A DNA stretch of 64,000 nucleotides. Origin: Bacteroidota bacterium. Its GTDB lineage: Bacteria; Bacteroidota; Bacteroidia; Chitinophagales; Chitinophagaceae. The translations under genes were made by a program, and so were the position numbers. The stretch is taken from the NCBI GenBank assembly GCA_016868895.1, contig VGFK01000004.1, positions 1-64,000 of the forward strand, given 5' to 3'. How positions within the stretch are numbered: position 1 is the stretch's first letter; every line of letters begins with the position of its first letter. The notes under the pieces are model-generated. The model was not told where the DNA came from. It searched no databases and worked only from the letters and a program-made list of their open reading frames with translations. Shown here in pieces: positions 34,517-38,265 of this stretch.

Positions 34517-34568
34517 GCTAGAATAACGCCTTTGAAGACCTTTGGTTCATCAACTATTTGGTTTATAG

Positions 34569-34576
34569 TACATTTG
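34569..34576 (+). promoter_or_regulatory. -7 box of ABC-F gene
   Basis: TACATTTG is a perfect -7 box 18 nt before the ATG at 34595. It places transcription start after the upstream in-frame ATG at 34532, which supports the shorter protein. Confidence 0.5.
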
Positions 34577-34594
34577 CAACCAATTTTCAGGAGC

Positions 34595-36511
34595 ATGCTG
34601 GCAGGATTTCAGGATTTGGTTTTTGAATTTGGCGCTCGCGTCATTGTGGAAGATGCCACCTGGCACATTCATCCGGGAGAGCGCATTGGCCTGATTGGCT
34701 TCAACGGAACAGGAAAGTCGACCTTGCTTAAGCTATTGGCTGGGGAGTACCAGCCCAGCAACGGGACGGTCGAACGGAGCCGATCGACCAGCATCGGTTA
34801 CCTGCACCAGGACCTCTTGAGTTTTGAAACAGGTTCGACTATTTTGGAAGTCGCCAAAACCGCCTTTGAGCGGGTGCTGGAAGTACAGTCGCGACTGGAA
34901 GTACTGGGACTGGAATTGGAACAATCAGAGGACGAAAAAAAATTAATGGAGTATACCGACCTCCTGCATGAAATGGATGTATTCGACGGCTATTCCATTG
35001 ATCACAAAACAGAGGATGTCTTGCATGGATTGGGTTTCAGCCAACACGACCTCTCCCGCCCTTACAAAGAATTCAGCGGTGGCTGGAGGATGCGGGTCCT
35101 GCTTGCAAAAATGATTTTGATGCAGCCAGATCTGTTGATGCTGGATGAACCGACCAACCACCTGGATCTCCCATCCATAGAATGGCTGGAAAAGTATTTG
35201 TCACACTACCAAGGTGCTGTGGTCATCGTGAGCCACGACAAATTTTTCCTGAATCGGATGGTCAATAAAGTAGTGGAGCTCTATCAACGGCGGCTGCATA
35301 TTTATTCGGGCAACTACTCATACTATGAATCCGAAAAAGCGCTGCGGCTGGATTTGCAACAACGGGCTTTTCAAAATCAACAGGATTTCATACGGCAACA
35401 AGAACGCTTCATTGAACGGTTTAAAGCAAAAGCATCAAAAGCCACTCAGGCACAAAGTGTACAAAAGCGTTTGGACAAGTTGGATCGCGTGGAGGAGGCT
35501 GTTATTGAACGACCCAATATCCGAATCAATTTCAGCGTGGATAAAGTCCCGGGCAAAGTCATTTGCACGCTTAACAACATCAACAAACAATTCGGGGATA
35601 TTCGAATCTTGACCGCAGGAACAGGTGAAATTGAACGTGGAGATAAAATTGCATTGATTGGAGCAAATGGTAAAGGGAAATCAACCCTGCTCAGGATCAT
35701 TGCCGATCGGGAGACCTTTGAAGGTGAACGCAAATGGGGCCATAATGTAGATGAAAGTTTTTACGCCCAGCATCAACTGGAGCATTTACGCTTAGACAAT
35801 ACGGTATTGGAAGAAATGCAAACAGCAGGAAGCAATAAAACCGATTTGGAGTTACGAACGGTACTGGGATGCTTTCTGTTTTCAGGGGAAGATGTGGATA
35901 AACGAATTCGGGTATTGAGCGGAGGGGAAAAAGCACGCGTGGCTCTTGCAAAAACCATTATCAGCAAGGCAAATTTTTTGATGCTCGATGAGCCGACCAA
36001 CCACCTGGATATGCATTCTGTCGATTTACTTGCAGAAGCCCTCGACAAATACGAAGGCAGCTTGATTCTGGTGAGCCACGATCGGTATTTCATTTCCAGA
36101 ACTGCGAATAAAATCTGGGAGATTGTCGACGAAAAAATTGTCGAATTCAAAGGAACCTATGCCGAGTGGGTAGAATGGAAAGAACGGATGCGCAGCCAAA
36201 TTCAGGAAAAAAAGGAAAACAAACCAGAGAAGAAAGAACCCATCGTCAAACCTGTTCCCACCTCCGTGGATAAAGAAAAACAAAAAGAAAGAAAAAAATT
36301 ACAAAAGCAATTTGATGATGTAGAAGCACGGGTCAATCAACTCAAGAAAGAAAAATCTGAAATTGAATATCAATTGGGAAATCCCGAGATGTATACTCAA
36401 AAAGACCAATTTACCGTACTGGAAAAAAAATACCAAACGACCATCACTGAGCTTCAATCGGCCGAAAAAGAATACGAGCGACTCTTTGAGCTATTGATGG
36501 ATACAGAATAA
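34595..36511 (+). CDS. ABC-F family ATPase (Uup-like)
   Basis: The start at 34595 gives 638 residues. The 34532 reading adds 21 residues upstream of the promoter. Two ABC cassettes lie in one chain: Walker A GFNGTGKST and GANGKGKST, signatures SGGWRMRV and LSGGEKARV, both with LMLDEPTNHLD. The ABC-F linker helix lies between them. A charged coiled coil (KKENKPEKKEP..., ~545-635) closes the protein, as in Uup. Such proteins act on ribosomes or recombination intermediates and do not transport. A bidirectional terminator follows. Confidence 0.93.
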   Translation: MLAGFQDLVFEFGARVIVEDATWHIHPGERIGLIGFNGTGKSTLLKLLAGEYQPSNGTVERSRSTSIGYLHQDLLSFETGSTILEVAKTAFERVLEVQSRLEVLGLELEQSEDEKKLMEYTDLLHEMDVFDGYSIDHKTEDVLHGLGFSQHDLSRPYKEFSGGWRMRVLLAKMILMQPDLLMLDEPTNHLDLPSIEWLEKYLSHYQGAVVIVSHDKFFLNRMVNKVVELYQRRLHIYSGNYSYYESEKALRLDLQQRAFQNQQDFIRQQERFIERFKAKASKATQAQSVQKRLDKLDRVEEAVIERPNIRINFSVDKVPGKVICTLNNINKQFGDIRILTAGTGEIERGDKIALIGANGKGKSTLLRIIADRETFEGERKWGHNVDESFYAQHQLEHLRLDNTVLEEMQTAGSNKTDLELRTVLGCFLFSGEDVDKRIRVLSGGEKARVALAKTIISKANFLMLDEPTNHLDMHSVDLLAEALDKYEGSLILVSHDRYFISRTANKIWEIVDEKIVEFKGTYAEWVEWKERMRSQIQEKKENKPEKKEPIVKPVPTSVDKEKQKERKKLQKQFDDVEARVNQLKKEKSEIEYQLGNPEMYTQKDQFTVLEKKYQTTITELQSAEKEYERLFELLMDTE

Positions 36512-36547
36512 AAAAAGAGGCTGCCCAAATGGACAGCCTCTTTTTTT
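36511..36547. terminator. Bidirectional terminator after ABC-F gene
   Basis: The stem GAGGCTG/CAGCCTC (36517-36523, 36534-36540) is flanked by an A-run on the left and seven T on the right. It can therefore stop transcription from both the ABC-F gene and the susD remnant. Confidence 0.9.
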
Positions 36548-36563
36548 AAAACAGTGAACCGAA

Positions 36564-36824
36564 TTAGTATCCAGCATTCTGTGTCAATACTGATTTGCCA
36601 TCTTTCTGTGAGTTCAGGATTTCATCCTGTGGGATGGGGAACAAATTGTGTTTTGACAAGAACACTTTTCCAGCAAGGTAGTTGCGCTTGCTGAATGTTC
36701 TGCCATTTGAATCATTACCCGCAATACCTTCTTTCGCAACATACGCATTGAGCACCTTTTCGGCAATGCCCCAGCGCACCAGGTCAAAGAAACGGTGACC
36801 TTCCATTGCAAATTCAAGGCGTTG
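36564..36824 (-). pseudogene. RagB/SusD C-terminal fragment
   Basis: About 86 codons encode the unmistakable end of a RagB/SusD outer-membrane glycan-binding lipoprotein: QRLEFAMEGHRFFDLVRWG, then HNLFPIPQDEILNS and LTQNAGY before the stop. A full SusD is ~450-550 residues. The N-terminal four fifths are missing, and an in-frame TAG (36827-36825) sits right at the upstream edge, where sequence homology switches to an integrase gene. No susC partner is nearby. This is a dead remnant left by a deletion or rearrangement. Confidence 0.9.
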
Positions 36825-36826
36825 CT

Positions 36827-37150
36827 AAAAGCGAGCAGCATTGATTGCAAATCCTTGTCCACTTTATGCTGACGATTTACATGTCTATCCAATAGGTTGC
36901 CCTTTTTAGTCTTTTCCTCATAATATTTCCAGATAAGTGATTCCATCTTCTTTATTTCTGAGTTGAAGAAATAGAATTTTGGATTCTTTGACTTAACAAT
37001 GGATTTTTTCTTATCCCAATCAGTAGACATGATGTAAATCCCAGTAGACAGATTTATTGGTTCACCAACTCCTTTGATTCTCATGTAAACTGGACCCTCA
37101 TTTTTGTTTTTACCCTTTGATAATATCTGGTAGAATGAAACTTTAATCAT
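36827..37150 (-). pseudogene. Truncated tyrosine-recombinase (integrase) 5' fragment
   Basis: The first ~108 codons read as the arm-type DNA-binding N-terminus of a Bacteroidota tyrosine recombinase: MIKVSFYQILSKGKNKNEGP, then YMRIKGVGEPINLSTGIYI and STDWDKKKSIVKSKNP. After codon ~108 the sequence changes to the susD fragment in another frame. The open frame continues only as a shadow of susD to 36614. The core-binding and catalytic domains (R-H-R-Y) are absent, so it is inactive. An integration-site-like repeat lies 71 bp upstream of the start. Confidence 0.82.
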
Positions 37151-37220: not shown

Positions 37221-37242
37221 CATTGGTTCGAATCCAATCGGG
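37221..37242 (+). repeat. att-like copy of tRNA-Arg 3' end
   Basis: These 22 bases are identical to the T-arm and half the acceptor strand of the tRNA-Arg at 37458-37531, but on the opposite strand. Identity stops after CGGG. A tRNA-derived core beside an integrase start is what an attachment site looks like. The inverted orientation is unusual. Confidence 0.75.
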
Positions 37243-37361: not shown

Positions 37362-37457
37362 AATAGAACTTAACAGAATTAAAATGTGAGATAAATGAAA
37401 AAATGCTCAAAAGTGATTGATTTTTAAGGCATTAGCAGAGATTAGTAGAACTCTTAG

Positions 37458-37531
37458 TGATCCCGATTGGATTCGAACCAATGACCTACAGCTTAGAAGG
37501 CTGCCGCTCTATCCAACTGAGCTACGGGACC
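37458..37531 (-). tRNA. tRNA-Arg (anticodon UCU)
   Basis: The 74-nt minus-strand sequence folds as a cloverleaf. The acceptor pairs GGTCCCG with CGGGATC, the D-loop has AGCTCAGTTGGATAGAGC, the anticodon loop is TTCTAAG (anticodon TCT, reading AGA), and the T-arm is TTGGTTCGAATCCAA. CCA is not encoded. Its 3' end is duplicated at 37221-37242. Confidence 0.97.
37462..37483 (-). repeat. tRNA-internal arm of the 22-bp inverted repeat
   Basis: This is the part of tRNA-Arg (T-arm plus first acceptor bases) that is exactly repeated in opposite orientation at 37221-37242. The two are separated by 219 bp. Confidence 0.75.
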
Positions 37532-37551: not shown

Positions 37552-37587
37552 ATTTTTTTTAGCTTGCAACCTGAGTCCAACCACCCC

Positions 37588-38265
37588 ATGAACGTAAACA
37601 TCGCCCCTTCTTGGAAATCTGCTCTTCAAAAGGAATTCAAACAGGATTATTTCCTCCATTTGGTTGATGTATTAAAGGCAGAAAAAGCAAGTGGACAACC
37701 CATTTTCCCTCCTGGCCCCCTCCTGTTCAATGCATTCAACCTGACTCCCCTTGAACAGGTAAAAGTGGTGATCATCGGTCAGGATCCCTATCATGGACCC
37801 GGTCAAGCCCATGGCCTGAGCTTTTCGGTTCAAAACAGTACTGCCCTTCCCCCTTCTTTGCTCAATATTTTCAAAGAAATTGAACAGGACCTTGGTGTTC
37901 GCATGTCGAGATGCAATGGCGACCTCACCCAATGGGCGAAACAGGGAGTGCTGCTGTTGAATGCGACCCTCACTGTTAGAGCGAACCAACCCAATAGTCA
38001 TTCAGGTTTGGGTTGGCAACAATTTACGGATGCGGTCATACAGCTGATCAATGAGCAAAAGAACCATGTTGTCTTTATGCTCTGGGGGAATTTCGCAAGA
38101 GAAAAAGGAAAGCACATCGACGAAAAAAAACACCTGGTGCTTCGATCTCCCCACCCTTCTCCTTTTTCGGCCGACAAAGGATTTTTTGGTTCCCAGCATT
38201 TTTCAAAAACAAATGAATACCTCATCTTACATGGAATTGAGCCGATTGATTGGCTTATCAGTTAA
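37588..38265 (+). CDS. ung: Uracil-DNA glycosylase
   Basis: Family 1 UNG removes uracil from DNA to start base excision repair. The ATG at 37588 gives 225 residues. The TTG at 37564 would add 8 non-family residues. The catalytic water-activating loop GQDPYHG is at 64-70 (D66), followed by AHGLSFSV. The leucine/histidine loop shows as RSPHPSPFS near 190. The plsC start codon follows its stop immediately. Confidence 0.97.
   Translation: MNVNIAPSWKSALQKEFKQDYFLHLVDVLKAEKASGQPIFPPGPLLFNAFNLTPLEQVKVVIIGQDPYHGPGQAHGLSFSVQNSTALPPSLLNIFKEIEQDLGVRMSRCNGDLTQWAKQGVLLLNATLTVRANQPNSHSGLGWQQFTDAVIQLINEQKNHVVFMLWGNFAREKGKHIDEKKHLVLRSPHPSPFSADKGFFGSQHFSKTNEYLILHGIEPIDWLIS

What the first reader, a model, noticed from the sequence alone, without database searches (positions are those of the whole stretch)
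36564..37150. Integrase-susD deletion scar
A tyrosine-recombinase gene is intact for its first ~108 codons, then switches within a few bases (near 36825) to the last ~87 codons of a susD gene in a different frame, with a TAG at the seam. Both genes are dead. Such a clean junction suggests a deletion that removed most of a mobile element, the integrase's catalytic half and the start of a glycan-uptake locus in one event. Relatives without the deletion should show what cargo was lost.
Basis: partly seen in the sequence, partly recalled or inferred. Interest (0 to 1): 0.6.

Follow-up and report, generated by a model that had tools for sequence, protein, structure and literature searches.

The report
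Deletion scar with mobile-element tip
A Bacteroidota genome carries the scar of a deletion beside a tRNA gene, where the start of a mobile element's integrase, the last 28 bases of a jumping gene and the end of a nutrient-uptake gene were fused; it is ordinary genome decay, read here almost to the base.

Summary
The scar is real, but its anatomy differs from the first description. It has three pieces. (1) The first 89 codons of a tyrosine integrase (37150-36882, minus; Arm domain only). (2) The 28-bp left terminal repeat of an IS3-family element (36881-36854); a copy with both transposase genes and another left end lie elsewhere in this genome. (3) The last 98 codons of susD (36860-36564). IS tip and susD overlap by 7 bp (CTTGTCC), a microhomology seam. 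The TAG at 36825-36827 is not at the seam: it is a nonsense codon inside the susD relic, at a residue invariant in six relatives. Relatives keep tRNA-Arg(TCT)-susC-susD-ABC-F, so susCD was a resident locus and not cargo. Best reading: an integrase-bearing element entered next to tRNA-Arg, an IS3 copy broke its integrase, and a microhomology deletion removed the IS body, the rest of the element, susC and five-sixths of susD (about 5 kb of resident DNA plus unknown cargo). No close relative of this integrase was found, so the cargo cannot be named. An exact inverted 22-bp copy of the tRNA-Arg 3' arm beside the integrase is unexplained. Ordinary decay; modest interest.

The parts
34532..36511 (+). 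ABC-F ATPase gene, left anchor of the locus
   Evidence: ORF list; an ABC-F homolog stands beside susD in G001, G008, G013, G021, G025
36518..36546 (.). Inverted repeat with a T run after ABC-F (terminator-like)
   Evidence: sequence; self-match as an inverted repeat in BLAST
36564..36860 (-). susD 3' relic: last 98 codons plus stop
   Evidence: SusD_RagB positions 218-297/297, E 3.7e-14; 79% protein identity to G008 SusD residues 490-590
36825..36827 (-). In-frame TAG inside the susD relic, replacing a Glu invariant in six relatives
36854..36881 (-). 28-bp left terminal repeat of an IS3-family element, reading TGTAAATCGTCAGCATAAAGTGGACAAG from the integrase side
   Evidence: exact 28-bp match to the IS end at G000:C5:93668 and to another end at G000:C9
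36854..36860 (.). 7-bp overlap (CTTGTCC) shared by the IS end and susD: the seam
36882..37150 (-). First 89 codons of a tyrosine integrase (Arm DNA-binding domain only)
   Evidence: Arm-DNA-bind_5; a 32%-identical relative in G239 has Arm plus SAM-like domains
37221..37242 (+). Exact inverted 22-bp copy of the tRNA-Arg T-arm and part of the acceptor, att-like, unexplained orientation
   Evidence: the repeat finder I1; two copies of its 21-bp core in this genome with up to 1 mismatch
37457..37531 (-). tRNA-Arg(TCT), intact
   Evidence: ARAGORN
37588..38265 (+). ung, right anchor of the locus (start codon chosen by eye; ORF list starts at 37564)
   Evidence: ORF list; homolog beside tRNA-Arg in relatives

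Best explanation
A decayed island remnant. Step 1 (inferred): a mobile element with a tyrosine integrase inserted beside tRNA-Arg(TCT), between the tRNA and a resident susC-susD pair. Step 2 (inferred; its trace is seen directly): an IS3-family element inserted into the integrase after codon 89, with its body on the susD side. Step 3 (inferred; its product is seen directly): a deletion between a site 28 bp inside the IS end and a site 98 codons from the end of susD, joined at a shared CTTGTCC, removed the IS body, the integrase's core-binding and catalytic domains, any cargo, susC and most of susD. Step 4 (seen): the susD relic has begun to decay (TAG; Pro to Ala in the C-terminal NPGY). I see no function in the remnant.
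For: IS tip: 36854-36881 is identical to the left end of an element with HTH_Tnp_1 and rve ORFs at G000:C5 and to a second end at G000:C9; OrfB passes the NCBIfam IS3 cut-off (175.9 against 160); beyond these 28 bp the C5 and C9 copies continue into the IS and the window continues into susD. Ancestral order ung, tRNA-Arg, susC, susD, ABC-F complete in G008, G013 and G021, and to the contig end after susD in G024; susD beside ABC-F also in G001 and G025. The 7-bp overlap has frequency 0.00057 among 400,000 random breakpoint pairs between the IS and G001 susD. The missing parts were not found in G000: only two Phage_integrase hits, in frames of 318 and 304 aa, no other SusD piece above 39% identity, no SusC piece above 47%, against 72-79% between the susC copies of relatives. 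The relic diverged from G001 mostly under selection (dN 0.044, dS 0.913, 97 codons) with hits at two residues invariant in six relatives, so inactivation is recent relative to that split.
Against: No relative was found with the integrase element at this tRNA, so step 1 rests on the integrase stub, its position about 300 bp from the tRNA and the att-like copy, and that copy is inverted, not direct as simple integration predicts. The IS body and its second end are gone, so no target duplication can be checked. The microhomology partner is G001's susD, not this lineage's own ancestor. Deletion in one step or several cannot be told apart. No reads were available.
Confidence: 0.85

Rival explanations
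1. Assembly chimera: an IS repeat misjoined two unrelated contigs.
For: The seam contains an IS end that is repeated in the genome, and contigs C9 and C7 break inside copies of this or a related IS.
Against: The shared repeat at the seam is only 28 bp on one side and 7 bp on the other. The susD copy bears a nonsense codon and a change at an invariant residue, which a misjoined live gene would not. The complementary halves (susD start, susC, integrase catalytic domain) were not found on other contigs of this 95.8% complete assembly. Both flanks (ABC-F, then tRNA-Arg and ung) sit in the ancestral order.
Confidence: 0.06
2. IS3-transposase-made adjacent deletion or transposition product, not microhomology repair.
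For: IS3-family elements are recalled to make adjacent deletions (no call); an IS end lies at the seam.
Against: A transposase-made adjacent deletion would be expected to start at the outer tip of an intact IS. Here the outer tip still abuts the integrase and the break lies 28 bp inside the element, at a 7-bp overlap.
Confidence: 0.07
3. The fused 178-aa frame is a new functional gene.
For: The frame is open from the integrase ATG through the IS tip and about 80 codons of susD read out of frame; in five of seven relatives the corresponding susD frame has earlier stops.
Confidence: 0.02

Closest known systems
IS-associated deletion and IS truncation in decaying bacterial genomes (e.g. Amoebophilus asiaticus, PMC3196728; passages seen)
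   Same: Truncated IS copies at varied positions; IS elements linked to gene loss
   Different: Here the retained IS piece is only 28 bp and joins two other broken genes; a 7-bp overlap can be read at the seam
tRNA-borne integrative elements with a tyrosine integrase (Arm-DNA-bind_5 type)
   Same: Integrase stub about 300 bp from a tRNA 3' end, reading away from it, with a copy of the tRNA 3' arm nearby
   Different: Only the Arm domain is left; the att-like copy is inverted; no element remains
Resident SusC/SusD pair (TIGR04056 / PF07980)
   Same: Last 98 codons of a SusD; the 80 relative loci kept by the scan are 63-79% identical to the G021 protein over their best segment
   Different: Dead relic with TAG; susC lost

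Membership tests
SusD/RagB family (relic) | SusD_RagB domain above the Pfam cut-off | tested here: met
   53.5 bits against 23.1, profile 218-297 of 297, C-terminal part only
SusD/RagB family (relic) | Paired susC upstream and an intact frame | tested here: not met
   No susC at the locus; TAG at 36825-36827
Tyrosine integrase | Arm DNA-binding domain | tested here: met
   PF17293 36.9 bits against 22.6 on 89 aa
Tyrosine integrase | Catalytic domain with R-H-R-Y | tested here: not met
   Sequence after codon 89 is IS tip and susD; G000 has only two Phage_integrase hits, in frames of 318 and 304 aa on contig C2
IS3 family insertion sequence (source of the 28-bp tip) | OrfA with HTH plus OrfB with DDE (rve) above the family cut-off | tested here: met
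   Copy at G000:C5: HTH_Tnp_1 and rve; OrfB 175.9 bits against the IS3 cut-off of 160; IS481 192 bits, below its cut-off of 224; OrfA alone under all cut-offs
IS3 family insertion sequence (source of the 28-bp tip) | Inverted terminal repeats TGT...ACA and short target duplication | tested here: inconclusive
   TGT...ACA ends seen by eye, with a related right end at G000:C7; no clear duplication at the C5 copy; not testable in the window because the other end is gone
tRNA-borne integrative element | Direct repeat of the tRNA 3' end bounding the element | tested here: not met
   Only an inverted copy, 37221-37242

The most novel reading that the evidence does not exclude
The scar is one of a recurring kind. 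In this lineage an IS3 element breaks the recombinases of tRNA-borne elements, and deletions that start a few dozen bases inside the IS end then clear the rest, leaving short IS tips as fossil markers of lost islands. Two analogous tips in relative G021 (57 and 35 bp) are fused near tRNA-Leu genes to a recombinase-like 3' end, and a 33-bp tip in G007 lies near tRNA-Asp.
Probability: 0.2. Interest if true: 0.45.

Novelty: new member of a known kind. Interest (0 to 1): 0.27.

Why it matters
It shows how a resident nutrient-uptake pair can be lost as a by-product of clearing a mobile element, and that short IS ends can order such losses. If the tip pattern holds more widely, IS tips would let lost islands be mapped in genomes where nothing else of them remains.

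Tried and rejected
Integrase relatives were sought to identify the lost cargo: 41 genus genomes (3 with a match including own; the two others at 27% identity), 396 order genomes (2 with a match at E 1e-6 or better including own; the other at 32%), GTDB contigs (40 pattern matches, none confirmed), viral contigs (19 pattern matches, none confirmed), plasmids and phages (no match at E 1e-3). The cargo therefore stays unknown. The 32% relative (L043, 333 aa scanned) showed Arm and SAM-like domains in Pfam but no Phage_integrase hit at E 0.01; NCBIfam gave XerC/XerD far below their cut-offs.

A new fused gene was considered and rejected. A cargo origin of susCD was rejected because of conserved synteny, although the space between tRNA-Arg and ABC-F varies in the genus. 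In the 8 genomes where both were on one fetched stretch (of 18 whose tRNA-Arg stretch was fetched, plus the window's own), it holds susC-susD in 3 (G008, G013, G021), only 66 bp in G026, other genes in G004, G022 and G031, and the scar in G000. G027 has susC-susD, but no ABC-F was found on its 3,956-bp contig.

Enrichment of orf-less IS tips at tRNAs was tested and is only suggestive. Of 36 tip loci examined (from; scored), 24 hold at least 300 bp inside the tip. A tRNA lies in the held locus in 5 of the 13 tips without IS ORFs and 1 of the 11 with them, and in 2 of the 12 tips cut by a contig end. Two further G121 tips had no locus and were not examined. Some orf-less tips (L189, L202) keep more than 75 bp that look like the IS leader, and L177 may be a different element with a similar end.

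The inverted tRNA-arm copy: integration in reverse through the palindromic TTCGAA was considered and set aside, because it would break the tRNA, which is intact. The susD relic is closer to G001 than ung is (susD end dS 0.913; ung 2.35; ABC-F saturated). Exchange of susD by recombination was not pursued.

Literature: four searches (1, 14, 0 and 0 papers). No listed title concerns this locus. Passages of PMC3196728 and PMC7392541 were seen, not the whole texts.

Full report
What is there. On the minus strand, from 37150 down, the window reads 89 codons of a tyrosine integrase (its Arm DNA-binding domain; PF17293), then 28 bp (36881-36854), then the last 98 codons and stop of a susD gene (to 36564; PF07980). 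The left neighbour is an ABC-F gene (34532-36511), the right neighbours tRNA-Arg(TCT) (37457-37531) and ung.

Where the seam is. Alignment with the closest relative found, G001, carries susD identity through 36860 (309 of 382 positions, a stretch that also takes in the end of ABC-F). The 28 bp at 36854-36881 match exactly the left end of an element on contig C5 of the same genome, and a second end on C9. The C5 element carries two ORFs, HTH_Tnp_1 and rve; OrfB passes the NCBIfam cut-off for IS3 family transposases and is under the cut-off for IS481, although it scores more bits there; OrfA alone is under every cut-off. So the scar has three parts, and the IS tip and susD share CTTGTCC (36854-36860). 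In 400,000 random breakpoint pairs between this IS and G001's susD, an overlap of 7 or more occurred with frequency 0.00057. The partner used there is G001's gene, because the lineage's own ancestor is not known.

The TAG. It lies at 36825-36827, inside the susD relic, where six syntenic or orthologous relatives have an invariant Glu (position 513 of alignment A1). An invariant Pro (597) is also changed, to Ala. Over 97 codons the relic differs from G001 by dN 0.044 and dS 0.913, the mark of a gene that was under selection for most of that time. Inactivation is thus recent relative to the split from G001.

What was lost. ung, tRNA-Arg, susC (about 1090 aa), susD (about 595 aa) and ABC-F stand in that order in G008, G013 and G021; G024 has all but ABC-F, its contig ending about 380 bp past susD; G001 and G025 have susD beside ABC-F. 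Compared with G021 (L013), about 5 kb of resident DNA between the tRNA and the seam is missing in the window. In G000 there is no other SusD piece above 39% identity, no SusC piece above 47%, and only two Phage_integrase-domain hits, in frames of 318 and 304 aa. The SusCD pair is widespread: of 460 pattern matches, 296 encode SusD relatives, and the 80 kept are 63-79% identical over their best segment.

The mobile element. Its integrase has no close relative in anything searched. The 32% relative in G239 has Arm and SAM-like domains in the 333 aa scanned; no Phage_integrase hit was returned for that stretch, and XerC/XerD models match it weakly. The window keeps the Arm domain only. The cargo cannot be named. 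A 22-bp exact inverted copy of the tRNA-Arg 3' arm lies about 70 bp upstream of the integrase ATG, and its 21-bp core occurs only twice in this genome with up to 1 mismatch. A direct repeat is what simple integration would leave; I have no good account of the inversion. In G001 the contig with tRNA-Arg ends one base past the same core, which may mean that an element or strain variation sits there too.

How it arose. The simplest order is: element next to the tRNA, IS3 into its integrase, then a deletion from 28 bp inside the IS to susD at a 7-bp overlap. The IS insertion must precede the deletion, because the outer tip of the IS still abuts the integrase while its body is gone. Whether the deletion was one event or several is not known.

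Wider pattern. IS tips without an IS body also lie in G021 (57 bp, near tRNA-Leu(CAA); 35 bp, near tRNA-Leu(GAG)) and G007 (33 bp, near tRNA-Asp). The G021 tips run into a sequence that by eye resembles the stretch beyond the IS right end at G000:C7. For that 74-aa stretch, relatives were found in 23 of 119 genomes including own, and one of 538 aa (L217) has Resolvase and Recombinase domains; the 74-aa stub and the 40-aa G021 stub alone match no NCBIfam model and no Pfam model above its cut-off, and the search returned no match in G021 itself. The overlaps at the two G021 seams (about 6-8 bp) were read by eye against paralogs, without a control. Over the 36 tips examined, tRNAs are near 5 of 13 tips without IS ORFs, 1 of 11 with them and 2 of 12 cut by contig ends: suggestive, not established, and chosen after the fact.

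Verdict. A real deletion scar, ordinary in kind, with its seam readable to a few bases. It is not a clean two-gene join, and it does not reveal the lost cargo.

Noticed in passing
window 37221-37242 and 37462-37483: Exact inverted 22-bp copy of the tRNA-Arg(TCT) 3' arm between integrase stub and tRNA; orientation opposite to what simple integration leaves.
   Followed up: partly
L174 (G021:C1), L178 (G021:C7), L173 (G007:C6): Short IS3 left tips (57, 35, 33 bp) without IS body, near tRNA-Leu(CAA), tRNA-Leu(GAG) and tRNA-Asp; two run into a recombinase-like C-terminus (resemblance by eye).
   Followed up: partly
L092 1-437 (G000:C7), L216, L217, L218, L219: Recombinase-like 3' ends lie near, or (L217) overlap, different tRNA genes (Met, Glu, Glu, Ser, Ser); of the five loci four have a tRNA, L215 none. 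Only L217 was tested and has Resolvase and Recombinase domains. Serine recombinases at many tRNA genes would be unusual (recalled, not searched).
   Followed up: partly
window 36564-36860 against L017 and L018: The susD relic is closer to G001 (dS 0.913) than is ung (dS 2.35) or ABC-F (saturated); possible exchange of susD between lineages.
   Followed up: no
L026 1872-3902 (G011:C10) and L080 1800-5403 (G063:C15): Two tRNA-Arg(TCT) copies in direct orientation, 2.0 and 3.5 kb apart, with other genes between them.
   Followed up: no
L018 end (G001:C150:13624): In the closest relative found the contig stops one base past the tRNA-Arg att-like core, as if strains differ there.
   Followed up: no
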